DNA of 64,000 bases from Roseomonas marmotae (lineage in GTDB: Bacteria; Pseudomonadota; Alphaproteobacteria; Acetobacterales; Acetobacteraceae), in the NCBI RefSeq assembly GCF_017654485.1, contig NZ_CP061091.1:2424501-2488500 (forward strand). Reading direction: 5' to 3'. Shown piece after piece: positions 19,146-36,348 of this stretch (positions are counted from its first letter, which is position 1; each line of letters begins with the position of its first letter). The notes under the pieces are model-generated. The model worked only from the letters and a program-made list of their open reading frames with translations. It did no database searches and was not told where the DNA came from. A program made the translations under genes and the position numbers.

Positions 19146-19473
19146 CGTCCTACCCCACTTTCCACAGCACGCTGCGGGTCCGCCGCCCGTTCCAGCATCA
19201 GGACCAGTGTGAGCCATACCATCGGCACGGAGCCGGCGGCCATCACCAACTCCGCCAGCGCCCGGCATGGACATAGCGCCACACGTCATCCATCGCCGGT
19301 GACGAGGAAGACAATGGGCGGCAGCAATGAGGAGGCTGGGATCCGGGCCAGGAATGCGTCGCGTGGCACGCCACCGACGCTGAAAAGTGCCCGCAGGAGG
19401 GAGAGCCGCCCTCGATAACAGCAACGGCACGAGGCAGGCTAAACAGCCTGCCTGTGGAAATTCTTGGCTGGGG
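19146..19473. other. eutB upstream region, between eutB and the island
   Basis: Before the island arrived, this DNA directly followed the tRNA-Ser 3' end. One minus-strand frame (about 19170-19320) reads as a hydrophobic stretch broken by a stop or frameshift. It could be a small transporter remnant, but I do not recognise it. No cobalamin-riboswitch-like structure is evident. Confidence 0.4.
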
Positions 19474-19494
19474 AAACTGGCGGAGGGGATGGGA
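19474..19494 (+). repeat. attL of the genomic island
   Basis: These 21 bp are identical to 36328-36348, the 3' end of tRNA-Ser. Here the match stops after GATGGGA, so this is only the tRNA tail left at the distal end and not a second tRNA gene. Confidence 0.88.
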
Positions 19495-19599: not shown

Positions 19600-20988
19600 T
19601 TGCCACTCGATAAGCGTAATCTGGAGCTGCGCCATTCAACATGGTGGTGTGTGCGCGACGTACCCCCTTCCCTTCGAGAGTTCTTGGGTAAACGGAGGTT
19701 GGCTCAGACGCTTGTGACGCACTCGCTCAAAGAGGCGAGGAGCCGCCGCGAGTTCGTGCTGGCCCACTGGGAACTAGTTTTTGAGGCCGCAAGACGTGGC
19801 CAGCAGCTGCCATGGCAAGTGCAACAAGCAGATCTGAGGGGGGGTAGATCGCACATCGCAGCGGCAATGAGCTATCGCGAGTTGATCTCCCAGGCTCAGC
19901 AGGAGGACGAGGAGAACAACCGGAACGCGATCTCCGAACGGGACAGGTCCGACCGGGCAAGCGTGCTGGAGTCGTTAGCCGAACAAGAGGCGGAGCAGCT
20001 ACCGCACGGAAAGGGTGAAGAGTTCCTTGCCGTCGTGCACGGCGGTGGTCTTCCGTTGGGGCATTTTGTCGAGCAGTGGCTAGGCCAAGGAACCTACACA
20101 GCCAGAACGGAGGCGGAACATCGCCTCGCTTTGACCAAGCTTCAAGACTGGCTGGCATCGATAAACCAAGCGGTTCTCGTCCAAGCAGTGACTCGGAGGG
20201 TAGCTGGGGAGTTTGTAGCCTCGCTTCAGGAAATGGGATCTCTCGCCCGGAAGACAATCAATAAGCATGTCTCATCCCTCTCCTCTTACTGGCGCTGGAT
20301 GGTCAGCAGAGGCCACGCGGAGGCGAACCCTTGGTCCGGCCAGGGTCTCAGCACAATGCCCGAGCATCGCCGGGGTCAGCATGAACAAAAGGAACGGCCC
20401 TTCACCGATGACGAGCTGAAGACCCTGCTTTCTGGCCCGGTGAGACGCGATGTAGCCGACATGATGCTGCTGGCAGCCCTCACTGGTGCCCGACGGGAAG
20501 AGCTTGCCCAGCTGAAGGTTGGGGATCTGAGGGAGGGAGCATTCTTCATCAGAGGCTCCAAAACCGCCGCCGGCGTGAGAGCCATCCCCATTCATCCCGC
20601 CCTTCAGGAGTTGGTCACAAGGCGAACCGCCGGTAAAATGCCCAACGAGTTCCTGCTGGACGAGCTGAAAGAATCGGGCGATGACGGCGCCCGCTCGAAC
20701 GGCGTAGGTAAAGCTTTCGAGTACTACAGGCGTCGCGTGAAAGTGGACGAATCTAGGCCAGGTAAGCGTCGGTCTCTGGTCAATTTTCATAGCTTTCGGC
20801 GCTGGTTCATCACGCGAGCAGAACGTGCTGGACAGCCGCCGCACATCATTGCTGCGGTAGTGGGCCATGCGCGACAAGGAATGACATTGGGCACCTACTC
20901 CGCAGGACCGTCGGGAGAACAGTACCGGGTGTGTGTGGAGGCCGTAAAACTGCCGGCTGGCCTGACCCTCCCGCCACCCGAGGCATAG
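19600..20988 (+). CDS. tyrosine-type site-specific integrase
   Basis: Phage/island integrase of about 462 residues. The N-terminal region (ending in THSLKEARSRR) has the feel of the DUF6538-type arm-binding domain, a SAM-like core-binding domain covers about residues 150-240, and the catalytic domain contains Arg298 (TGARREE), Lys321, His397-x-x-Arg400 (HSFRRWF), His423 (VVGHARQ) and nucleophile Tyr433 (GTYSAG). All six catalytic residues are present, so the enzyme is probably active. The start is a TTG at 19600; a GTG about 50 bp later is possible. The location beside attL fits integration of this island at tRNA-Ser. Confidence 0.93.
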   Translation: MPLDKRNLELRHSTWWCVRDVPPSLREFLGKRRLAQTLVTHSLKEARSRREFVLAHWELVFEAARRGQQLPWQVQQADLRGGRSHIAAAMSYRELISQAQQEDEENNRNAISERDRSDRASVLESLAEQEAEQLPHGKGEEFLAVVHGGGLPLGHFVEQWLGQGTYTARTEAEHRLALTKLQDWLASINQAVLVQAVTRRVAGEFVASLQEMGSLARKTINKHVSSLSSYWRWMVSRGHAEANPWSGQGLSTMPEHRRGQHEQKERPFTDDELKTLLSGPVRRDVADMMLLAALTGARREELAQLKVGDLREGAFFIRGSKTAAGVRAIPIHPALQELVTRRTAGKMPNEFLLDELKESGDDGARSNGVGKAFEYYRRRVKVDESRPGKRRSLVNFHSFRRWFITRAERAGQPPHIIAAVVGHARQGMTLGTYSAGPSGEQYRVCVEAVKLPAGLTLPPPEA

Positions 20989-21023
20989 GAGGTGGGAGAG
21001 CCAGAAGCACGTCGTAGTTCAGC

Positions 21024-21551
21024 TTAAGGTTCTTTGCAAATGAACAGCCAGCCAGCAGCCGACTTCCAAGTTTCTACAAGACCTTGGTCAGCGAGGCGGC
21101 GAGCAGCGCGATTTACATCCCAAATCAGTTCATCGATGGTTGCCGCGATCGTCTCGGCAGTGCGGGGTTCAGCCGGATCCATTGCGGCAAGAACACGCGG
21201 CTCAAGACTTGGGTCATAGCCCGGCTCAATGTTTCCTTGGGTGAACCGTTCGCACCATACGATCCGGCCCCTCCAGACAATGAAATGGCTTCCACAGCCG
21301 CCTTCACGCCAGACCGACGGGATGAGTGTTGCTCCCTCGCCGCGCATGTCGATGCGCCAAGCTTTGCCGGCTCGTCGATCGAGGTTCACTACCAGCGTCT
21401 CCCCGCACCCATCAGGGCACGCAATGACAAGGGAACGCTGCCGGCCGCGCACAACCAGCACGGCATCGCCGGCTGCGCCTAGCCGAGCTTCCGCCTCATC
21501 CCGGTATTCCGCTTCGCCGAGCAACCGCAATGTTCGTGCTGGATGACTCAT
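21024..21551 (-). CDS. DUF6527 (BubE-type) protein of the ubiquitin-like operon
   Basis: Last gene of the seven-gene operon, 175 residues. Residues 30-100 match the DUF6527/BubE pattern: Cys45 and Cys49 in CPDGCGE, a TLIPSV segment with Ser79, then CGSHF (Cys86, His89) and a WRGRIVWC end (Cys100). The Cys/His set suggests a zinc site. Residues 110-175 form an extra helical part resembling a winged helix (IDELIWDVNRAARRLADQG). Family members co-occur with multi-ubiquitin, E2 and JAB-E1 genes; their activity is not something I can derive from sequence. The ATG overlaps the JAB-E1 stop by 4 bp. Confidence 0.8.
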   Translation of the reverse strand: MSHPARTLRLLGEAEYRDEAEARLGAAGDAVLVVRGRQRSLVIACPDGCGETLVVNLDRRAGKAWRIDMRGEGATLIPSVWREGGCGSHFIVWRGRIVWCERFTQGNIEPGYDPSLEPRVLAAMDPAEPRTAETIAATIDELIWDVNRAARRLADQGLVETWKSAAGWLFICKEP

Positions 21552-22891
21552 GCTGCGTTCCCCCATGGCCTGGAGCGGACTGGAAGCGGCCAGCTCGCAC
21601 CGCGCGCGAGAGCACCGCTTGTCGAGCAGGCGACGCAGTTGCAGGATTTTGTCGCAGCCATCTCCCGCACCTGCCCACGGATGCCGTCATAACGCTGATA
21701 ACGTGGACTGGCCGGTACAGGCGTGACCGCGCCTAGCAGCATGGTGACGGCAAGCGACGCCACCGTTGAGTTGATCGAGATCACCGCAGGCTGGGGCTCA
21801 CGCTCGCCTTGCACGTAGCGATCCGCCGCTCGTTGCTCAGGGGTCATGAGCTCTCGACGGATGAGCTCTCCATCAAGCGCGCGGGTGCAAGTCAGACATG
21901 GAAGGCCAGGGGAGAGCATTTGCACACGGCCGGTAATGTGTGTGACGACGCTGTCCCGCACTGTGATGCTTACTCCCATATCGATCACCGGCACGAGGTG
22001 CTGATAAGCAGCCTGGTTCACCACCGCCCGGCTCGCGTGAGAATCGGTGCACAAGAGGATGAAGTCGAGCGAGGCCAATCTGGTGGCTACCTGCTCATCG
22101 ACAACATCCGCACGGAGCGTGTGCACTTCGACTGCGGGATTTACTGCCCGCATCATCCTGGCTGCAATATCGACTTTGGCTTCTCCAACATCCGGTGGGG
22201 TGGAGCCGACCAGTCGGTTCAGATTAGTGGCCTCCACGATGTCAGGGTCAATCACGGTCACCCTGGCGGCCCCCAGGTGCGCGAGTTGCTGACATACCAA
22301 CGATCCGGTCCCACCGGCGCCAATGACGCCAAAATGCAGTCGACGAAGCAGACGCTGACCCGAGTCGCCGAAGGCCCGCACCTGCCGGTCATCCCGCTCC
22401 TCCGTGGCAGCAAAAGGAGGCTGCGAATGCAGCACCAAGCGCTCCCCAGCTTCCCACACTGGTACCTCGGTGCCATCATCGAGGCGTCTGGCCCGGCAGC
22501 CTCCTGGCCCGATTACCATCGCCAAGTGCGCAAGTTGTGCGCCGCGCTGGGCTAGGTACAGCCCGAACTGCGCTTCCCCGCGGTCATCAACCTTTGAGAA
22601 CGTCGGGTATCCGCGGCTACCTGGATGCGTATGTATCATGACCGCAGCCATGCCTGTCGCTCGGCTGCGATTTGCCACCTCCATCATGAAGTGGGCTCCA
22701 AGTGTAGCCGCGGCAGCATCGCGCCGCTCGTAGGCCGAATCCGGCACCGGATTCGCCTCAGCGACCACCCAGGCATCGGCCGCTGGATTGTAGTGGGCAT
22801 ACGCGACCGCACAGCTCTCTGCCCCATTTGCCTGCAGCAGCACATCAGCAAGCTCGCGATACTGGGGCGCCGCGAAACGAATGCCGCTCAT
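21548..22891 (-). CDS. JAB deubiquitinase-like + E1-like (ThiF/UBA) fusion
   Basis: 447 residues in two parts. Residues 1-155 are a JAB/MPN metalloprotease with an intact JAMM core, His87-x-His89 and Ser99-x-x-Asp102, expected to trim or remove ubiquitin-like tags. Residues 170-425 are an E1-type adenylation domain: GAGGTGS (191-197), DPDIVEATNLNR (215-226) and a zinc site formed by Cys332/Cys335 and Cys417/419/422. No Cys lies between the two zinc pairs, where a canonical catalytic Cys could sit. The ATG at 22891 overlaps the E2 stop by 4 bp. It probably activates the ubiquitin-like protein encoded two genes upstream. Confidence 0.9.
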   Translation of the reverse strand: MSGIRFAAPQYRELADVLLQANGAESCAVAYAHYNPAADAWVVAEANPVPDSAYERRDAAAATLGAHFMMEVANRSRATGMAAVMIHTHPGSRGYPTFSKVDDRGEAQFGLYLAQRGAQLAHLAMVIGPGGCRARRLDDGTEVPVWEAGERLVLHSQPPFAATEERDDRQVRAFGDSGQRLLRRLHFGVIGAGGTGSLVCQQLAHLGAARVTVIDPDIVEATNLNRLVGSTPPDVGEAKVDIAARMMRAVNPAVEVHTLRADVVDEQVATRLASLDFILLCTDSHASRAVVNQAAYQHLVPVIDMGVSITVRDSVVTHITGRVQMLSPGLPCLTCTRALDGELIRRELMTPEQRAADRYVQGEREPQPAVISINSTVASLAVTMLLGAVTPVPASPRYQRYDGIRGQVREMAATKSCNCVACSTSGALARGASWPLPVRSRPWGNAA

Positions 22892-23271
22892 TGAGGCCGC
22901 CTCAGCCGTTCGGCCACAACGTTCATCCAGGTGGAAAGCGTATCGCGGTTGGCATCCCAAGGGCCGGTCAAATGCCACGAGAACCACAAGCCACTTTCCG
23001 TGGTTTCGGGAATCTGCATCTCTTGAGTGTTCTGTGGCAGGCCCCCGTTCGACAATCGCAGGCCTGTATCAGCCCAAAAACAATCGACTGGTGCGTAAGG
23101 GTACCCCGGCGGGATTAGGAAGCGGATGTTGGTCGACAACGTCGACCAACCTTCCGGCAACCGGACGTCCGGCACGCTGACAAGCGAGGTGCTGCTTGGC
23201 AGGTGCTGGACATGGACGCCACCGAAGCGTTCCTGCAGCTGTTCCAGCTGCATGGCGATGATCCCCGACAT
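22888..23271 (-). CDS. prokaryotic E2-like (Prok-E2 family E type) protein
   Basis: A 127-residue UBC-fold protein. The family framework is visible: FLIPPGYPYAPVDCFW (residues 51-66), the SWH motif (98-100) and WDANRDTLSTWM (105-116). It has one Cys only (Cys64), placed where many relatives, as I recall them, have a non-Cys residue, so Cys64 may not be the catalytic residue; Ser98/His100 are alternatives. The start codon shares one base with the stop of the ubiquitin-like gene (TGATG), and the end overlaps the JAB-E1 start. Function is inferred: transfer of the ubiquitin-like protein to targets. Confidence 0.85.
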   Translation of the reverse strand: MSGIIAMQLEQLQERFGGVHVQHLPSSTSLVSVPDVRLPEGWSTLSTNIRFLIPPGYPYAPVDCFWADTGLRLSNGGLPQNTQEMQIPETTESGLWFSWHLTGPWDANRDTLSTWMNVVAERLRRPQ

Positions 23272-24017
23272 CAGCCGAAGTTCGCCTTCGGCACAGATGA
23301 GAAGCGGAGGATGCCATGCGCTGCACCGAGGCTGACACTCTCGTCGTCACCGATTGCCCGGTCAGGCTCATCCCCGCGGCCCTCGAGGGTCAAATCATGC
23401 GTGGCATCCCAGTTTGGCACCATCGCCTTGATCTCGGCGCCCGTCAGCGTCTTCTGGTCCGTCTCGTAGCGCGCGCCGTTAACAAAGAAGTGATAAACTG
23501 GCTTATGCGGGGCCGTGATGAACTTCTCAACGCCGGGCTGGGTTAGATCGACCTCACTTCCCGGAACGATCAGCCGATCGGTTCCGCCGCGCACATCGAG
23601 GAAGACCGCCTCGTCGGAACTGGCCTGCGCCAGTGAGCGAAGAGCCGCCTCGGGAATGGTGGGCATGCCCCAGACGATGCGGCTGTCGTTCACCTTAACC
23701 CGATAAAGGGGGTCGCCGCTGAAGGCGACAAATCGGTAGGCGGCCCGACCACGCAGATCGACCGCCTCGTCAGGGCGAACGTCCTCGAAGTCTCCTTCCT
23801 CAGTGATTACAAAGAGTGCGTGATCCTCGGCTTGCTGCAGATGGGCGGCCTTCAGGATTTGGCGCCCGAGCGGGACCGGATCGTCCAGCAGGAGCGGATG
23901 GAAGTCGATGCCGTTTAGCGCAAAAGAAACGCGGTAGCGTCCAGGGCGAAGCTGGCGGTCCTCGCGCACAGCAGCAAGCACATCGTCAATGCCGGCAAGA
24001 TGATCGTTAGTATCCAC
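23271..24017 (-). CDS. multi-ubiquitin domain protein (three tandem beta-grasp units)
   Basis: 248 residues containing three ubiquitin-like repeats, about 27-98 (RYRVSFALNGIDF...), 104-168 (LYRVKVND...) and 174-241 (VYHFFVNGARYET...). The tail ends VPKANFG with a free C-terminal Gly, so it is ready for adenylation without processing. The first ~25 residues are a helical lead. The start is GTG with an AGAGGAA ribosome site. It stands 81 bp after the helicase gene, the only sizeable gap in the operon. It matches the Multi_ubiq family, which is encoded beside E2, JAB-E1 and DUF6527 genes. Confidence 0.9.
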   Translation of the reverse strand: MDTNDHLAGIDDVLAAVREDRQLRPGRYRVSFALNGIDFHPLLLDDPVPLGRQILKAAHLQQAEDHALFVITEEGDFEDVRPDEAVDLRGRAAYRFVAFSGDPLYRVKVNDSRIVWGMPTIPEAALRSLAQASSDEAVFLDVRGGTDRLIVPGSEVDLTQPGVEKFITAPHKPVYHFFVNGARYETDQKTLTGAEIKAMVPNWDATHDLTLEGRGDEPDRAIGDDESVSLGAAHGILRFSSVPKANFG

Positions 24018-24098
24018 TCTGATGTTCCTCTTCGATGGGCCGCGGTAGCGGCGTTCGAAGGGTTAATCGCTCCGGCGGGGAGTGGCCGGTAATCTCAT

Positions 24099-27000
24099 TC
24101 AGAGATTTTTTTTGAGTGAGCCGGCGGCAAGCGGACCACATATAAAGAAGGTAGGGCAGCTGGGACATGTACGGTCCGATTGCTCCGGTCGGAACTGCCC
24201 GGACCCAATCGCGGCAAGCGTTGCCTTAAGTTTTTCGTGCCGGCTTTCGAGCTTCCGCCTGTCGAAGCTAACCTCCACTACAGGCGAGTGGTCGGAGAGA
24301 TGTAGGATTTCGACTTTACACCCGGGTAAAATTTTCGACACTGCCATTTGGAACGCAGCATCGGCGAGTTCTTTACCCGCTTCCGACTTCCCATGGCCTG
24401 TCCGGATGATCCTTGCGACGTGCCCGCCAGGAGTAGCAAGGACATCATCTGCCTTTGCCGTAAGCACATCATCGCCAATTACCAGCTGAAAGGACCCTGT
24501 TTCCACCCGCTGGCCGCTGCCCCGTACGTTCGTGAACCGACGGACCAGCAGCAGAGCGACTTCCCGGTGAAGTCGATACTCCGGGCCTGCCAGCGGATCT
24601 ACAGCCCATCTCTGCGCCAGCAACGCTTCCGCTCGCTCCGTTAAGTCGCCGGCAGGCTCCAGGCTAACGACATCCTCGACCACCTGGCGAACCAGATCGT
24701 GTACCCGCGACAACGTTGTCGGACTGCGGCGGCCGCCAACACCAAGGATGTGAGTGTAAAGAAAGCGGCGCGGACAGCGTGTGTAGAGGTCGAGCTGAGC
24801 GGTCGTTACGACGACTGGGGGTCCGATCTGGATCGGCAGTGCTCCGCCTTCAGGATCAGGGTAGAGGTTAGGGTTCGATCGAGCCGAGCGTGAATGTATG
24901 CGTCCCAGCCCGGCGATGAACTTGGATGGGCTGCGCGTTTTGCCCCCAGCGTCGTACGAGGCAGAATACAGTAGCAGCCGGTCGCGAGCGCGTGATGCCG
25001 CGACGTAGAACAGACACTCTTGTTCTGCGGCGTGGTCGGTTGCAGCTATCGCAACGGTCCCGCCCTGCCCGCCTTCGATCATGCCATCCGGGACAGGACA
25101 TGCAGGCCGACGAGCGGCACTTGGCATCCCGTTCTTGTTGAGGCCCATGACATGGACAACAGGGAACTCGAGACCTTTACTCCCATGAATTGTCATAAGT
25201 CTTACAGCGTCGATTCCCTGAGCTGCGAGCGGCAGCTGCCTGAGATCACGATCATCTGCGAGTTGGACGAGGCGCCGGATGCGATCAAGCAGGCCTTGCA
25301 CCGGCACGCCGGGTCCATGACGGTCCGTCCGGAGGAAGCTCATCAGCTGCCAAACGGCCACCCCCATCGCACGCTTAGCGGCATCGTCAGGCGCTGACAG
25401 CAAGGCGGCCACCCTGGTACGGTCGAGCAGAACTTTGGCCAGCACAAGCCACGGTCGATCCTTCGTGCCGAAGCCTTCGACGATCTCGCCGAGCCGGCGC
25501 AACGCCGCACGATCTTCGAAGCCGAGCTCCGAAATGGTTTCCGCAAAACCCTTCCAAGTCAGCGGGGCGGCGTCGGCTCGTCTTAAAGCGTCAATCACAG
25601 CAGCCGCGCCCGCCAAGCTAAGGCCGACGTGAAGACCATCCAACACCGGCTTACGCACCAGCGCCATGGCCCGCTTGTCAACGAGAAGCGAAACTAAAGA
25701 AAGTAGATCCTTTACCTCCGGCCGCTCGAACAGATTACCGAGGTAGAGGACGGGAATGTTGCGCCGCTCCAACTCGCGGCCGAGCCGAGCAAGACGCTCA
25801 TTGCCCGGACACAGAACTGCCTGACTACGAAAACCAACAGCCGGTGCGAGAGCCAAAATTTCATCGGCAAGCGCGCCTGCCTCGTCATCATTATTGCCGA
25901 AGGTAACATGCTCCGGTGGGACACCGCTCGACCTGCGATGCGCGCACAAGGTGGCTTCACCCGTTCCAACTGCCATGCCGGCGCCGAAGGTGGAGAATGC
26001 AGTGACAATTTCGGGCGTGGATCGGTAGTTGATCCGTAGTCGGCCAGATGAGGCGCCAGGAAAGTCGTCCGAGGCAAATCTCGCCATGTTGTACGATGAA
26101 GCACCACGAAAGCGATAGATTGCCTGCCTGCCATCTCCGACTGCCCAAAGGCCGCGCCCGCCTTCAGTGAGGTGCTGCAGCAAGCGGACACTACTGCGAT
26201 TGACATCCTGGTACTCGTCGACGAGCACATTCGTGTAGGCACCGCGTATGCGGTCGGCAACGCTTGGCATCTCGTCAAGAAGTGTGACTGGAAGGGAGAC
26301 GAGGTCGCCGAAGTCCACAGTGCCGGCGGCCTTCTTTAACTCCTCGTAGCGTCGGTAGACAGTAGCGACTTCCCTGCAGCGCTCGGCAGCCTCTATCGCA
26401 CCTGGATCGACCGCCGCGGCCCGCATGGTCAGGGCCAGAGCCTCGAAGCGGTCGACATCTGCGACCTCGTCCTTGGCTCGCGACACGGCTGCCAACATGT
26501 CGCGTAGCGGGCGGGAAGGATCCCAGAGCTCTTGATAATGGTTGAGCTCCAATGAAAGGTACTCGGCCTCGAGCAGCGCAACCGCTTCGGTACGGTCCAT
26601 CAGCCGCGGCTCACAGGCAAATCCCAGCTCACGGTGAAAGCGACGGACCAAGTCGAGGCCAAATGCGTGGAACGTACCCACCCACATCGCTGGGGCAGCA
26701 TCAGGCTTTACTGTCGCGATGCGATCAGAAAGTTCGCCTGCGGCCTTGTTGGAAAAAGTGAGCACGAGGATGGTACGAGGGTCGACGCCTTCGTCCACAA
26801 GGGATGCAACCCGGCCGATAAGCGTTTGAGTTTTGCCGGTTCCAGGCCCAGCCTCAAGTAGATACGGCGCGCCTCGGTGGCCGGCAGCAGCGCGCTGCTC
26901 ATCGTTAAGCGGCTTCGGTGGAGAACTGGGTGGAGATGCTTGGGCCGGGTCGATGGCAGGGAGAAGCAGCGCGTCGAGCAATTGCTGTGCGACAACGTCG

Positions 27001-27500
27001 AAGGGTGCTCCGAGGCGCTCAGCGATCTGTGTTGCAGTCATTCCTTCGAGGTGCAGGTCGCGTGCGCGCGAGCGGGGTAGTAGAAGCTCGCGCCCGAACA
27101 GATCCATCTGGATCTCGCGGCGCTGCCGCCGGCTGTAGTCGACTACCCGGTCCTCGCCGACTGGCGCCGCTTCAGCTGACCTTGCAGGATCAACTTCATG
27201 CGTGACGTGGCTGATCTGATCGTCGCCTAGGAGAGCGTGACCTATCTCGTGCCCCACAAGGAACGCTTGGTCGAATGCCGAACCACTATCCTCGTGCCTG
27301 ATGGCCCGTTCTACCGGGTCGAAGTGAGCCTTGCCGCCTGATAGGATAGCGCCACCGGCCTGGACCGGCTCGACATCAATGCCATGGCGGGCTGCGGCGG
27401 CAACCGCTAGCGCGTAAACATTCCACGGGTCTGTACAACCTGGAACCACCGCCTCGTGCAGTTGTGCTGCGCGCTGCCGCGCCAGTTCAACGGCATCCAT
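24099..27500 (-). CDS. ImmA/IrrE-type Zn peptidase + UvrD-like helicase + degenerate RecB-like Fe-S domain
   Basis: 1133 residues. Residues 1-150 are an ImmA/IrrE-type zincin with His84-Glu85-x-x-His88 (HEIGH) and a distal Glu129. Residues 195-870 form an SF1A helicase: GPGTGKT (218-224), DEYQD (428-432), RGAS after motif III, NYRST (491-495), TIHGSKGLEF (770-779) and a VAASRARD motif VI. Residues 895-1133 resemble the RecB/AddB nuclease fold with Fe-S cysteines Cys909, 1112, 1115 and 1121 (C-x2-C-x5-C). The catalytic D/E-x-K strand reads IIRTG (1031-1035), so the nuclease is probably inactive. The start is 3 bp after the upstream stop. Confidence 0.9.
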   Translation of the reverse strand: MDAVELARQRAAQLHEAVVPGCTDPWNVYALAVAAAARHGIDVEPVQAGGAILSGGKAHFDPVERAIRHEDSGSAFDQAFLVGHEIGHALLGDDQISHVTHEVDPARSAEAAPVGEDRVVDYSRRQRREIQMDLFGRELLLPRSRARDLHLEGMTATQIAERLGAPFDVVAQQLLDALLLPAIDPAQASPPSSPPKPLNDEQRAAAGHRGAPYLLEAGPGTGKTQTLIGRVASLVDEGVDPRTILVLTFSNKAAGELSDRIATVKPDAAPAMWVGTFHAFGLDLVRRFHRELGFACEPRLMDRTEAVALLEAEYLSLELNHYQELWDPSRPLRDMLAAVSRAKDEVADVDRFEALALTMRAAAVDPGAIEAAERCREVATVYRRYEELKKAAGTVDFGDLVSLPVTLLDEMPSVADRIRGAYTNVLVDEYQDVNRSSVRLLQHLTEGGRGLWAVGDGRQAIYRFRGASSYNMARFASDDFPGASSGRLRINYRSTPEIVTAFSTFGAGMAVGTGEATLCAHRRSSGVPPEHVTFGNNDDEAGALADEILALAPAVGFRSQAVLCPGNERLARLGRELERRNIPVLYLGNLFERPEVKDLLSLVSLLVDKRAMALVRKPVLDGLHVGLSLAGAAAVIDALRRADAAPLTWKGFAETISELGFEDRAALRRLGEIVEGFGTKDRPWLVLAKVLLDRTRVAALLSAPDDAAKRAMGVAVWQLMSFLRTDRHGPGVPVQGLLDRIRRLVQLADDRDLRQLPLAAQGIDAVRLMTIHGSKGLEFPVVHVMGLNKNGMPSAARRPACPVPDGMIEGGQGGTVAIAATDHAAEQECLFYVAASRARDRLLLYSASYDAGGKTRSPSKFIAGLGRIHSRSARSNPNLYPDPEGGALPIQIGPPVVVTTAQLDLYTRCPRRFLYTHILGVGGRRSPTTLSRVHDLVRQVVEDVVSLEPAGDLTERAEALLAQRWAVDPLAGPEYRLHREVALLLVRRFTNVRGSGQRVETGSFQLVIGDDVLTAKADDVLATPGGHVARIIRTGHGKSEAGKELADAAFQMAVSKILPGCKVEILHLSDHSPVVEVSFDRRKLESRHEKLKATLAAIGSGQFRPEQSDRTCPSCPTFFICGPLAAGSLKKNL

Positions 27501-27503
27501 GAC

Positions 27504-28091
27504 CTAGTTACGTCCGGAAATCAGCCGTCGGCGCTGCTCTTCGGGCACCTTTGCCTCTTCGAGAAGTTGTTCAAAGGAAATCTTGGAAGATACCGCCACA
27601 GGCGCCTCGTTCGACTTGTAGCTAAGGCCAGCAACGAGTCGCGGAGGATTAGCCAGGAACGAATGCAGCTGCTCAGTCGTGGTCTGGAGGCCTCGGGCTA
27701 ACACTTCAAGGAAGCGGTCGGGCACAGTCGCTAAGTCAACCAACCTCGCCCGAAACCCCACCATGACGCTGCTCGGCACACCTAGTTCCCGCCTAAGCGT
27801 CAGCAACTGCCGCGGCGTCAGGAGAGCAAACGGGTCTACCGGTTCCACCTTCGGAACCGAAAGGATCGCTTGGAACGCTTGCCAAGATGCGTCCACCCAA
27901 GCCTCATCTGCTGGCGTTGTTTGACCTTCAGCCGCGCGTTGAAGCCTCAGCTCAAGCGAGAGGTCGACGAGTTCTTCCACCATTGATGGATGCTCGCGTA
28001 AGTACCTTTCGAATGTCTGACGGTCGTGAACGGGCTCAGATGCAAACTCGAACAGTACTTGCTCGACGTTGTCGTGTTTGGGATTACTCAT
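27504..28091 (-). CDS. putative HTH/regulatory partner protein, unrecognised
   Basis: 195 residues, family not recognised. The N-terminal half is helical (TFERYLREHPSMVEELVDLSLE). The middle, about residues 90-150, contains LLTPRQLLTLRRELGVP followed by further short helices (VPDRFLEVLARGLQTT), which looks like a Cro/C1-type or related small HTH. Its position between a sigma-like gene and an ImmA/IrrE-peptidase gene recalls ImmR/DdrO-type repressors cleaved by ImmA/IrrE partners. That is inference, and an anti-sigma role is equally possible. The ATG at 28091 overlaps the sigma gene by 8 bp. Confidence 0.65.
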   Translation of the reverse strand: MSNPKHDNVEQVLFEFASEPVHDRQTFERYLREHPSMVEELVDLSLELRLQRAAEGQTTPADEAWVDASWQAFQAILSVPKVEPVDPFALLTPRQLLTLRRELGVPSSVMVGFRARLVDLATVPDRFLEVLARGLQTTTEQLHSFLANPPRLVAGLSYKSNEAPVAVSSKISFEQLLEEAKVPEEQRRRLISGRN

Positions 28092-28905
28092 CTGCCGCTC
28101 CAAGCCCGATCATCTCGCGTATACGCCTGATGGCGTCGTCGCGCCTGTTGCGAACCGTCTTCTCAGTCACTCCTAGTACTTTCCTGATGGAAAGCACCTG
28201 CTCGTCGGACGAATCCAACGGCATCCCTTGGAGTATCATTTCAATCACTCTTCGTTGCTTTTCCGGTAAAGCATCTATCGCTGCTGCCACGCGCGACCGG
28301 TAAATTGGATCCTTGGACAGCAGCTCTTCTTTCAGATCGAGGCTGCCGACGGCACGTTCAACTGCCACTGACGGCTCAAGTGTATCGTCATCGCGCTCGA
28401 TCTGGGCGCTCCTAGCCGCTTCGCGTCGTGAAGACCGGAGGGCAGTAGCGCGCAGAGATGCAACAGCACCGGCAAACATCACCTCGAAGTAATCGAGGCT
28501 AGAGTGCAGATTTTGTTGATCCTCGATTAGCTTCTTGTTGAATACATCTCTTACTTGATCGCGTGCACTGGCGGCATGGACGTTTTCCAGCTTCCCGATG
28601 CGCTCTCCTTCTACACGCGGCAAAGCCGCATCGATGCGGCGCATCAATTCGAGGTAGAGCTGCTGGAAGTACGGACCATTGTTATCGAAGCGCGCTGTAC
28701 GGATCAGATGGACCAAGCATTCCGACTGCACGTAATGGTCGGATCGTGGGTCGCGTACCCTCAGCGCCACCAATACCTCCTCCCTCGACTTCTCGAGTAG
28801 AAGGGTCAAAGCAGCTTCAACCTCGGGACGCCGTGTGTAGAGGGAGCCATCAGGACGCCGTTGGGTTAGTTCGGCGGGTCGTACCTCCCGTACTTGCGAT
28901 GCCAC
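28084..28905 (-). CDS. sigma-70-family (ECF-like) RNA polymerase sigma factor
   Basis: First gene of the operon, 273 residues. Residues 58-150 are a helical stretch compatible with region 2 (CLVHLIRTARFDNNGPYFQQ), and residues 204-266 are a region 4 HTH (AIDALPEKQRRVIEMILQG, then LGVTEKTVRNRRDDAIRRIR), the classic end of sigma-70 proteins. It is longer than usual ECF factors, with about 55 extra N-terminal residues and an acidic linker near 170-180. The start is GTG with GGAAAGG 11 nt upstream. It probably directs polymerase to this operon or other island/host promoters. Confidence 0.8.
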   Translation of the reverse strand: MASQVREVRPAELTQRRPDGSLYTRRPEVEAALTLLLEKSREEVLVALRVRDPRSDHYVQSECLVHLIRTARFDNNGPYFQQLYLELMRRIDAALPRVEGERIGKLENVHAASARDQVRDVFNKKLIEDQQNLHSSLDYFEVMFAGAVASLRATALRSSRREAARSAQIERDDDTLEPSVAVERAVGSLDLKEELLSKDPIYRSRVAAAIDALPEKQRRVIEMILQGMPLDSSDEQVLSIRKVLGVTEKTVRNRRDDAIRRIREMIGLGAADE

Positions 28906-28928
28906 TGAAAGACTCGCCTTTCCTGGGT

Positions 28929-28946
28929 GTTAGCTGACAAGCTAAC
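28929..28946 (-). promoter_or_regulatory. palindromic operator candidate before the sigma gene
   Basis: GTTAGCT and AGCTAAC form a perfect 7-bp inverted repeat around a 4-bp centre, 24-41 bp before the GTG of the first operon gene and just upstream of its ribosome site. A TTGACG hexamer lies about 21 bp further upstream (28968-28973) without a normal -10. The site is suited to a dimeric repressor. Confidence 0.5.
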
Positions 28947-29444
28947 GCTCTCCGCTGGTCTACCGTGCGTCAAGATCCTTTACGAGGCGAGCGCTGCCCA
29001 TGGCATGCTTGTGGATAAACCTCGAACACGCCTTGCTACCGCGGCGCCGTCTGAAGTGTATACGCGCGGAACTGCGCGGCTCTTGCTCAGGATACCGCTG
29101 ACATTGGAGGTCATGATTTACGGTACTTTTTCTCGGAGAGGATCTCTCACTTCTCGTTCTTAGCCTGAGCATCTCTTCCGGCGGCAGAAACCAACAACCA
29201 GAACAACGCTTTAAGCCCCTTTTCGAAGAGAGGGTCGGAAATCGACCCCCCCCCCCCCCCCGGGGTCCGCATCTTGATGTCATGGAACTCGGTGTGAACC
29301 CTCAGGTCGTGCGTATCTTCCGCAGCTTGCCCCAACATACCTGGCCTCGTTCATCATTGTCATAAGCCGCCATCGGACGTTGGCCTGAATTGACAAGGCG
29401 CGAGGCGGGATTCAGGGTGGGGCATCCGGCTGGAGAGCTGCACC
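28947..29444. other. intergenic region between the operon and the serine recombinase
   Basis: About 500 bp between divergent genes. It should hold the promoters of both. It contains an uninterrupted run of 16 C at 29246-29261. Minus-strand frames crossing the run read as Gly tracts but do not resemble known proteins, so I leave them as non-coding. Confidence 0.5.
29246..29261. repeat. homopolymeric C16 tract
   Basis: Sixteen consecutive C between the sigma operon and the recombinase gene. Tracts this long are prone to slippage in replication and also to sequencing error. Confidence 0.9.
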
Positions 29445-30146
29445 GTGCCTGCCCCGACCCAAGACTTCGTTCCCTACCTCCGCGTCTCCACCGACCGCCA
29501 GGGCCGTTCAGGGCTAGGCCTGGAGGCGCAGCAGGCAGCCATTGCCGCGTTCATCGCTCAGACCCCTGGCGCCCATCTTCTGGATCCACCCTACATTGAG
29601 GTGGAGAGCGGGCGAAAGGACGACCGGCCCGAGCTCGCGGCGGCCATGGAGCGGTGCCGCAAGACCGGCGCCACGCTGCTGATCGCCAAGCTGGACCGGC
29701 TGGCCCGCGACGCGCACTTCCTGCTGGGCCTCCAGAAGGCGGGCGTGGAGTTCGTCGCCGCCGACATGCCTCATGCCACCCGGCTGACCATCGGCATCCT
29801 GGCCGTAGTCGCGGAGGAGGAGGCCCGGATGATCTCGGCGCGGACCAAGGCTGCTCTGGCGGCCGCCAAGGCTCGCGGCGTCAAGTTGGGTGGAGTGCGC
29901 CCAGGTCAGCGACTGCCCGACGCAGAGGTCTCCGCACAAGCCCGCAAGGCCGGCACAGCAACCCTACAGATGCGAGCCGAGAGGAAGTCCCGCCAGACTG
30001 GCCGCCGGATCGCCGCATGGGTGGCCCAGGGCGAGAGCCTCGCGGGGATCGCCAGGGCGCTAAACGAGGCCGGGGAGCGGGCGCATCGAGGCGGCCTCTG
30101 GACCGCCACTGCCGTGCGGAGAGCGCTGCTGAAGGCTGCCGAATGA
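29445..30146 (+). CDS. serine recombinase (resolvase/invertase family)
   Basis: 233 residues. The resolvase catalytic domain begins YLRVSTDRQGRSG with nucleophile Ser15, and conserved Arg residues occur in KLDRLARDA (LDR motif) near residue 85. A long helix (EEEARMISARTKAALAAAKARG) follows, and then a C-terminal HTH (GESLAGIARALNEAGERAHRGGLWTATAVRRAL). The start is GTG with GGAGAG upstream. It may act as the resolvase or invertase of an earlier mobile element; no inverted repeats flanking an invertible segment were noticed. Its codon use is closer to the host than that of the operon. Confidence 0.92.
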   Translation: MPAPTQDFVPYLRVSTDRQGRSGLGLEAQQAAIAAFIAQTPGAHLLDPPYIEVESGRKDDRPELAAAMERCRKTGATLLIAKLDRLARDAHFLLGLQKAGVEFVAADMPHATRLTIGILAVVAEEEARMISARTKAALAAAKARGVKLGGVRPGQRLPDAEVSAQARKAGTATLQMRAERKSRQTGRRIAAWVAQGESLAGIARALNEAGERAHRGGLWTATAVRRALLKAAE

Positions 30147-36273: not shown

Positions 36274-36327
36274 AAAATCGACGCCAGATTAAGGCGTTGA
36301 AATCATTGACCTTCTAACCGGAAGGGA

Positions 36328-36348
36328 AAACTGGCGGAGGGGATGGGA
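36328..36348 (+). repeat. attR of the genomic island
   Basis: These 21 bp are identical to 19474-19494 and overlap the 3' end (CCA, acceptor strand and start of the T arm) of tRNA-Ser. Confidence 0.88.

What the first reader, a model, noticed from the sequence alone, without database searches (positions are those of the whole stretch)
21024..28946. Seven-gene operon combining sigma factor, putative repressor, ImmA-helicase fusion and a complete ubiquitin-like conjugation set
On one strand, with overlaps of 1-8 bp at five junctions and one gap of 3 bp, the order is sigma-like, HTH-like, ImmA/IrrE-UvrD fusion, three-unit ubiquitin-like protein, E2-like, JAB-E1, DUF6527. The last four match the multi-ubiquitin/Prok-E2/JAB-E1/DUF6527 operons described in comparative genomics (recently called Bub, to my recollection). 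The unusual part is the coupling to an own sigma factor, a possible repressor and a peptidase-helicase, all on a tRNA island. A possible model: ImmA senses DNA stress through the helicase, cleaves the repressor, frees sigma, and the conjugation genes come on. The 81-bp gap before the ubiquitin-like gene could hold a second promoter.
Basis: partly seen in the sequence, partly recalled or inferred. Interest (0 to 1): 0.93.

Follow-up and report, generated by a model that had tools for sequence, protein, structure and literature searches.

The report
Sigma-factor switch for bacterial ubiquitin-like defence
A seven-gene unit, found in the same order in distant bacteria and on plasmids, joins its own sigma factor, a likely inhibitor and a peptidase-helicase DNA sensor to a ubiquitin-like protein-tagging set, and carries two copies of a private promoter-like signal, one of them inside the sigma gene.

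Summary
The seven-gene operon is real and one conserved unit. A scan with the sigma-like protein alone gave 43 genome loci; the 41 long enough have sigma, HTH and ImmA-UvrD in this order, and the 39 that extend further have a ubiquitin-like cassette: Bub-type in 37, the anti-phage 6A-MBL system in 2. Six of six plasmid loci opened agree.

New: the helicase ends in a PD-(D/E)XK domain that keeps its Fe-S cysteines but lacks the catalytic acid in 38 of 38. The gap before the ubiquitin gene holds TTACCGG-N17-GATT, within one mismatch in 40 of 40 testable cases (13 of 3666 control windows). A twin lies inside the sigma gene, where synonymous sites are constrained, and the copies vary together. In eight genomes chosen among the 13 with the module, the exact motif occurs 13 times, always in this operon.

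Best reading: a mobile protease/anti-sigma/sigma switch that senses damaged DNA and turns on a Bub cassette. Cleavage, sigma release and phage defence are inferred, not shown.

The parts
28084..28905 (-). ECF-like sigma factor: N-terminal extension, sigma2-like and sigma4 regions; relatives are annotated 'response regulator' or 'hypothetical protein' in most plasmid records listed
28276..28303 (-). Internal promoter-like element TTACCGG-N17-GATA inside the sigma gene (codons 201-210), about 213 nt before the HTH start
   Evidence: synonymous-site test; the fourth base of the second box is A in the window (T in most relatives)
27504..28091 (-). HTH-like protein, 195 aa; Xre/CapH-like fold in residues 82-152; helical N-terminal domain that may be an anti-sigma domain
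24099..27500 (-). ImmA/IrrE peptidase - UvrD helicase - PD-(D/E)XK domain fusion, 1133 aa
   Evidence: Pfam PF06114, PF00580, PF13361, PF12705; conservation in 38 full-length sequences including the window
24138..24800 (-). C-terminal PDDEXK_1 domain (residues 901-1121): Fe-S-type cysteines C909, C1112, C1115, C1121 kept, catalytic acid absent
   Evidence: Cys 38 of 38; position 1031 never acidic, 0 of 38
24065..24092 (-). Gap promoter-like element TTACCGG-N17-GATT upstream of the ubiquitin-like gene
   Evidence: 40 of 40 testable cases with at most 1 mismatch, against 13 of 3666 control windows; exact motif found only in this operon in 8 chosen genomes
23271..24017 (-). BubA-like three-unit ubiquitin-like protein, C-terminus SVPKANFG
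   Evidence: PF14452, 3 stretches; PDB 9cd2 1.9e-18; C-terminus the same in 12 of 12 (window and 11 near relatives)
22888..23271 (-). BubB-like E2 (Prok-E2_E)
   Evidence: PF14462 40.2 bits; Citrobacter BubB E 0.0068; C64 invariant in 12
21548..22891 (-). BubCD-like JAB-E1 fusion
   Evidence: PF00899; Citrobacter BubCD 7.4e-33; H87, H89, D102 invariant in 12
21024..21551 (-). DUF6527 protein, probable zinc binder
   Evidence: PF20137; C45, C49, C86, H89, C100 invariant in 12
19470..19494 (.). Putative att repeat, left end of the island
   Evidence: 96% identical to 36324-36348
36324..36348 (.). Putative att repeat, right end, overlapping the 3' end of tRNA-Ser
19600..20988 (+). Tyrosine integrase next to the left repeat
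   Evidence: PF00589, PF20172
36332..36424 (-). tRNA-Ser (GCT), probable integration site
   Evidence: ARAGORN

Best explanation
A mobile immune operon with its own transcription switch. Shown by comparison: sigma, HTH and ImmA-UvrD-PDDEXK form one portable control part that precedes ubiquitin-like defence cassettes (mostly Bub-type, twice 6A-MBL), and it carries two copies of TTACCGG-N17-GATT, one inside the sigma gene upstream of HTH/ImmA-UvrD and one upstream of the cassette. Inferred: the sigma factor reads both elements as -35/-10; the HTH protein holds sigma (and perhaps DNA) inactive; the UvrD/dead-nuclease part binds single-stranded DNA or DNA ends made by damage or phage attack and activates the ImmA peptidase; ImmA cuts the HTH protein; freed sigma transcribes the Bub cassette, and also new HTH and ImmA-UvrD, which amplifies the sensor and resets the switch afterwards.
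For: Elements: gap site 40 of 40; both sites in 46 of 49; both sites at 10-11 of 11 bases in 5 of 6 plasmid loci, 9 of 11 in the sixth, L115; absent from 9 of 9 Multi_ubiq loci without the module; private to the operon in 8 chosen genomes. Co-variation: third base A/A in 42 and T/T in 4, none mixed; the Acinetobacter plasmid has TTACCGA at both sites. DNA-level selection: 21 of 26 non-redundant sigma genes keep the box, 0.79 expected from codon usage. Sigma fold. Peptidase HExxH 38 of 38 and nuclease acid 0 of 38, as expected of a sensor. Precedents: ssDNA-activated PprI/IrrE (PMC10904395, abstract), CapH+CapP at Bub operons (PMC13373217, passages), Csx30/CASP-sigma (PMC10028731, passages), CalpL/T/S (PMC12751052, abstract).
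Confidence: 0.6

Rival explanations
1. CapH-like repressor model: the HTH protein itself binds the twin elements and blocks transcription; ImmA cleavage removes it; sigma is a partner that recognises the same promoters or a constitutive factor.
For: The HTH core aligns to CapH NTD, DdrO, SinR and 434 repressor folds; CapH+CapP controls Bub operons elsewhere (PMC13373217, passages); 4 of 9 Bub loci without the module have a stand-alone Peptidase_M78 gene divergent from the ubiquitin-like gene; sigma4 recognition stretches vary on plasmids while TTACCG stays.
Against: The element is two unlike boxes at a fixed 17-bp spacing, promoter geometry rather than a palindrome (though ACCGGT within it is one); the HTH protein falls to 24% identity to the window although the elements stay the same, while the sigma4 stretch is nearly invariant in the 62 proteins.
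Confidence: 0.26
2. The ImmA-UvrD protein is an effector, a DNA-processing defence enzyme, rather than a sensor; sigma and HTH regulate the downstream genes in response to something else.
For: UvrD motors occur in defence systems; PADLOC GajB and DRT helicase models match it.
Against: The catalytic acid of its nuclease is absent in 38 of 38 sequences while the peptidase site is kept in 38 of 38; the gene lies with the regulators, upstream of the second element, in 48 of 49 testable loci (L105 has no clear element).
Confidence: 0.09
3. The twin elements are not promoters but some other conserved DNA or RNA signal (processing or attenuation site, or a housekeeping promoter).
For: No transcript data; positions after the -10-like box are also conserved (C at +30 and +31, T at +33 of the motif count).
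Against: Not found in the 9 Multi_ubiq loci without this sigma nor elsewhere in 8 genomes; spacing 17 in 38 of 40; the TTA-to-TTT change occurs at both sites together; the boxes resemble neither TTGACA nor TATAAT (consensus recalled).
Confidence: 0.06
4. The genes are unrelated neighbours in a defence island.
For: The operon lies on an integrative island; most Bub loci lack the module (3 of 12 have it).
Against: Order and strand are kept across Pseudomonadota, Acidobacteriota (MAGs only), Planctomycetota and a cyanobacterial plasmid, with a gap of 80-98 bp before the ubiquitin-like gene in five annotated plasmid records and 81 bp in the window.
Confidence: 0.02

Closest known systems
Bub (bacterial ubiquitination-like) operons, with CapW, CapH+CapP or CapK+CapS regulators
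   Same: Payload proteins are BubA/BubB/BubCD relatives; Bub operons carry upstream DNA-damage regulators: 219 of 544 with CapW or CapH+CapP, 59 of 544 with CapK+CapS (PMC13373217, passages)
   Different: The regulator here is a sigma factor, an HTH protein and an ImmA-helicase-dead-nuclease fusion with twin private promoter-like elements. In that paper 'sigma factor' appears only within 'anti-sigma factor' (all 9 places shown).
CapH+CapP / DdrO-IrrE / ImmR-ImmA repressor-peptidase pairs
   Same: ImmA/IrrE peptidase next to an Xre-like HTH protein; ssDNA as activator of PprI (PMC10904395, abstract) and of CapP (PMC13373217, passage)
   Different: The peptidase is fused to a UvrD helicase and a dead Fe-S-type nuclease domain, the HTH protein has an extra N-terminal domain, and a sigma factor is encoded first
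CASP (Cas7-11/Csx29-Csx30-CASP-sigma) and CalpL/CalpT/CalpS
   Same: A defence-linked protease cuts a sigma-factor inhibitor so that an ECF-type sigma acts; CASP-sigma has motif copies in its own locus (PMC10028731, passages; PMC12751052, abstract)
   Different: No CRISPR or second messenger; the protease is a zincin fused to a DNA helicase; the output is a ubiquitin-like conjugation set
6A-MBL anti-phage system
   Same: In L014 and L015 the same control part and gap element precede it (NF058524 410.1 and 408.5 bits, cut-off 220; NF058523 660.4 and 652.3 bits, cut-off 320)
   Different: The window carries Bub instead; the ImmA-UvrD proteins of the two 6A-MBL loci fall inside the window's clade

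Membership tests
Bub operon | BubA-type (multi-)ubiquitin-like protein | tested here: met
   PF14452 three stretches; PDB 9cd2 1.9e-18
Bub operon | BubB-type E2 and BubCD-type E1-JAB | tested here: met
   BubCD 7.4e-33; BubB E 0.0068, weak but supported by Prok-E2_E 40.2 bits
Bub operon | Conjugation of the ubiquitin-like protein to targets | not testable with these tools
   Needs biochemistry
ECF-type (group 4) sigma factor | sigma2 and sigma4 folds | tested here: inconclusive
ECF-type (group 4) sigma factor | RNA polymerase binding and promoter-specific initiation | not testable with these tools
   Only indirect: private conserved elements
CapH+CapP | ImmA/IrrE peptidase with HExxH | tested here: met
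   38 of 38
CapH+CapP | CapH-like repressor: N-terminal Xre HTH with C-terminal oligomerisation domain (layout recalled) | tested here: inconclusive
CapH+CapP | ssDNA-activated cleavage of the HTH protein | not testable with these tools
   Needs assay
Active PD-(D/E)XK nuclease | acidic residue two before the catalytic Lys (motif recalled, placed by my alignment) | tested here: not met
   Position 1031 acidic in 0 of 38
CASP / Calp protease - anti-sigma - sigma circuit | Csx29/Cas7-11 or SAVED-Lon protease | tested here: not met
   No such domain among the seven proteins in Pfam or NCBIfam; may work like it, is not a member
6A-MBL system | MBL-fold enzyme and Cap2_3 protein over cut-off | tested here: not met
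   Window JAB-E1 42.7 bits against cut-off 320; met in L015 and L014

The most novel reading that the evidence does not exclude
A so far undescribed class of mobile immune controller: a helicase-fused metallopeptidase releases a dedicated sigma factor from an anti-sigma HTH protein, and the coding sequence of that sigma factor doubles as one of its two private promoters. The control part is exchanged between ubiquitin-like defence cassettes and occurs in at least four phyla and on conjugative plasmids.
Probability: 0.57. Interest if true: 0.9.

Novelty: new variant of a known kind. Interest (0 to 1): 0.85.

Why it matters
How ubiquitin-like defence operons are kept silent and switched on is an open question; the published regulators account for about half of Bub operons in one survey (219 + 59 of 544; PMC13373217, passages). 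This locus offers another answer with a built-in test: two precise, private promoter-like elements whose function can be read with a reporter. It would link ssDNA-sensing ImmA peptidases, sigma-factor release and bacterial ubiquitin-like tagging in one transferable unit, and its presence on plasmids of unrelated hosts suggests that it is useful in many of them.

Tried and rejected
Viral contigs: 39 pattern matches with the HTH alignment, none a relative. Phage records: no match to the sigma protein. A conserved element upstream of the sigma gene: the strict motif is not found within 350 bases, and I saw no shared element in the 190 bases printed; the inverted repeat GTTAGCTTGTCAGCTAAC at 28929-28946 is not among the perfect repeats of the other loci. 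The match at 28243-28269 (TTACCGG-N16-GATT at codons Leu-Pro) was first taken for the internal site and rejected after codon inspection; the aligned internal site is 28276-28303. Two further own-genome matches (TTTCCGG-N18) lie outside the operon and were not pursued. Papers: Ye 2026 and Gong 2025, the Bub papers, are not held and are known only from the text and reference list of PMC13373217. Nine answered searches showed, in the rows listed, no paper on a sigma factor plus ImmA-UvrD at Bub operons; most subscription papers and the preprint library are outside it. Rows dropped before counts: L022, L031, L033, L039 (contig ends) from the gap and cargo counts; L012 (frameshifted helicase) from the 39 long sequences, leaving 38; L042, L071 (same contig as L036) and L105 from the codon test; L009 (contig end) from the 12; G280 (weak partial sigma hit, no module); L012, L022, L039, L042 from the tree. 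One search covered 8 of the 13 genomes with the module, chosen because their gap site reads TTACCGG; G454, G700, G724, G1004 and G1082 were not given.
Full report
Observation. The seven open reading frames are present on the minus strand. Pfam gives DUF6527 (PF20137), ThiF with a Prok-JAB hit below cut-off (18.9 bits), Prok-E2_E (PF14462), three Multi_ubiq stretches (PF14452), and for the large protein Peptidase_M78, UvrD N and C parts and PDDEXK_1. The HTH-like protein has no family over cut-off (one NCBIfam hit at E 0.08); the sigma-like protein has region 4 hits below cut-off. Six junctions: overlaps of 8, 1, 4 and 4 bp, a 3-bp gap and an 81-bp gap.

Payload. By sequence against solved structures the JAB-E1 is closest to Citrobacter BubCD (9ea4, E 7.4e-33), the E2 to Citrobacter BubB (9eae, E 0.0068) and the ubiquitin-like protein to multi-ubiquitin proteins (9cd2, 1.9e-18) and BilA (8u38). 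In the window and 11 near relatives the ubiquitin-like protein ends SVPKANFG in 12 of 12, the JAMM-type residues H87, H89 and D102 are invariant, and DUF6527 keeps C45, C49, C86, H89 and C100.

Linkage, first sample. A genome-contig scan with the sigma alignment alone gave 43 loci. It used one peptide pattern, EKTVRNRRD, so it samples sigma relatives that keep this stretch. By profile the HTH gene is found in 42 of 43 and ImmA-UvrD in 41 of 43; the misses (L031, L033) are contig ends. Of the 39 loci that extend beyond ImmA-UvrD, 37 have a Multi_ubiq cassette by tblastn (35) or Pfam (L018, L019), and 2 (L014, L015) have the 6A-MBL set, over NCBIfam cut-offs in both, plus a patatin-like gene (Pfam in L015; by likeness in L014). 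Payload layouts differ: separate E2 and JAB-E1 (window type); DUF6791-E1 without a separate E2 (L018 by Pfam; L025 and L026 by likeness); separate JAB (24.2 bits, just below cut-off) and E1 (L019).

Linkage, independent samples. Profile searches of whole genomes found the sigma protein in 6 of 395 (order), 4 of 385 (class) and 6 of 398 (phylum) genomes, the own genome counted each time. Cargo there: Multi_ubiq-E2 and JAB-E1 (L092, L104), JAB-E1 (L091), Multi_ubiq and/or DUF6791-E1 (L102, L103), ThiF (L105); L093 has a JAB-like protein below cut-off and a 455-aa protein without a Pfam hit; L094 ends within ImmA-UvrD. The 14 same-genus genomes listed all lack the sigma gene. On plasmids 70 of 72,556 records match the sigma protein, 43 of them Acinetobacter. 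I opened six (Rhizobium sullae, R. leguminosarum, Leptolyngbya, Acinetobacter lwoffii, Cereibacter, Klebsiella): six of six show sigma, HTH, the helicase (in two pieces in L115), multi-ubiquitin and ThiF; DUF6527 is annotated or Pfam-confirmed in five and not listed in L110. The 50,697 phage records have none.

Converse. Multi_ubiq is found in 12 of 385 genomes of the class, 11 of them over cut-off; 3 of these 12 (own, G266, G065) have the module. Of the other nine, four have a stand-alone Peptidase_M78 gene divergent from the ubiquitin-like gene, compatible with CapP, which is reported at Bub operons (PMC13373217, passages). So the module goes with a ubiquitin-like cassette far more than Bub goes with the module.

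Dead nuclease, live peptidase. In 38 full-length sequences the HExxH residues, D121, E129 and E138 are invariant, and so are the four Fe-S-type cysteines (909, 1112, 1115, 1121), but position 1031, where PD-(D/E)XK nucleases carry the acid two residues before the Lys, is R, M, V, K, I or Q, never acidic (motif recalled and placed by my own alignment). The Walker A motif and the DExQD stretch are also kept. This fits a DNA-binding sensor better than an effector nuclease.

Gap element. Every testable case has TTACCGG-N17-GATT near the ImmA-UvrD stop codon: 40 of 40 including the window with at most one mismatch, 37 exact, spacer 17 in 38 and 16 in 2; random 120-nt windows of the same loci reach this in 13 of 3666. 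The ends of L012 and L042 were set by hand. The 6A-MBL loci have it too. Nine Multi_ubiq loci without the module have no copy on either strand; the two fetched ones with it do.

Internal element. A second copy lies in the sigma gene at codons 201-203 and 209-210 (window 28276-28303), about 213 nt before the HTH start. Residue 201 varies (I, N, F, L, A, D, S) while its third base is T in 41 of the 43 aligned genes, window included (L007 and L036 differ; L042 not alignable). In 26 sigma genes clustered at 70% identity, the full box T-T[AT]C-CGG is present in 21 where the loci's own codon usage predicts 0.79 (nominal P 4e-30), and the wobble T in 24 where 6.2 are expected. The site was picked as the best match in a 130-nt stretch and the genes are still related, so P is only a guide; the alignment-based count does not depend on such picking.

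The two copies vary together. Of 54 rows (L071 repeats L036), 49 can be tested for both sites and 46 have both within one mismatch, with TTT and GATA/GATC allowed as variants. The third base is A/A in 42 and T/T in 4 (L035, L038, L093, L104), never mixed; the T lineages encode Phe in place of Tyr at residue 202. L092 has TTACCGC at both sites, the Acinetobacter plasmid TTACCGA at both; the Leptolyngbya plasmid differs between sites (TTACCGA, TTACCGC). Failures: L105 lacks both, and L042 (broken sigma gene) and L091 miss the internal one.

Private regulon. In eight whole genomes, chosen from the 13 with the module because their gap site reads TTACCGG, the exact motif TTACCGG-N17-GATT occurs 13 times: the gap site in 8 of 8 and the internal site in 5 of 8 (the others differ by a base or more), and nowhere else; the reversed control pattern has none. 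With a looser pattern the own genome has two further TTTCCGG-N18 matches and one chance N16 match.

Cargo exchange. In the ImmA-UvrD tree of 38 rows the two 6A-MBL loci sit within the 14-row Bub-type clade that holds the window (100/100); L021 is outside it; the pairing of the window with Sphingomonas L007 has 92/85. The operon lies on a 16.9-kb tRNA-Ser island; its five 2-kb bins (20001-30000) have G+C 0.60-0.62, all other bins 0.625-0.725.

Mechanism. Shown by comparison: one unit, two linked promoter-like elements, exchangeable cassette. Inferred: sigma reads the elements; the HTH protein restrains sigma; ssDNA or DNA ends engage the UvrD/dead-nuclease part; ImmA cuts the HTH protein; the cassette is switched on and the sensor and inhibitor are remade. 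Precedents exist: ssDNA-activated IrrE/PprI (PMC10904395, abstract), CapH+CapP (PMC13373217, passages), Csx30/CASP-sigma with motif copies in its own locus (PMC10028731, passages), CalpL/CalpT/CalpS (PMC12751052, abstract). I put linkage at about 0.98, the elements being this sigma's promoters at about 0.8, ImmA cutting the HTH protein at about 0.7, and sigma release by that cut at about 0.6.

Novelty. The pieces are known kinds; the combination and the twin element appeared in none of the rows listed by my nine answered searches (the open library lacks the two main Bub papers). I file it as a new variant of a known kind.

Noticed in passing
L114 8977-16178; L112 8980-16202: The same control part with a multi-ubiquitin/ThiF/DUF6527 cassette sits on a conjugative Klebsiella pneumoniae plasmid and on a mobilizable Acinetobacter lwoffii plasmid; 43 Acinetobacter plasmid records match the sigma protein, only one was opened.
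   Followed up: partly
L015 10121-15852: 6A-MBL set followed by a patatin-like phospholipase and a 347-aa protein with an HExxH-like stretch (by eye), under the same control part; the last gene has no Pfam family.
   Followed up: partly
L093 11039-13016: Cargo variant: a JAB-like protein below Pfam cut-off and a 455-aa protein without a Pfam hit that looks ThiF-like by eye, near AddB/UvrD-like genes (by eye); both elements are TTTCCGG-N17-GATC.
   Followed up: partly
window 28929-28946: Perfect inverted repeat (7-bp arms) just upstream of the sigma gene, not seen at the same place in relatives.
   Followed up: partly
window 29246-29261: Run of 16 C between the sigma gene and a serine recombinase; possible assembly or phase-variable tract.
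   Followed up: no
window 29445-30146: Serine recombinase (Resolvase family) inside the same tRNA-Ser island.
   Followed up: no
L042, L115, L012: Broken copies of the helicase gene (and of the sigma gene in L042); L042 and L012 keep the exact gap element, L115 a 9 of 11 match.
   Followed up: no
L110 8932-9786 and other plasmid records: Public annotation often calls the sigma gene 'response regulator transcription factor' or 'DNA-binding response regulator', which the fold search does not suggest.
   Followed up: partly
whole-genome controls: DUF6527 also rings in Caulobacter vibrioides, one of the 14 control genomes, none of which has Multi_ubiq.
   Followed up: no
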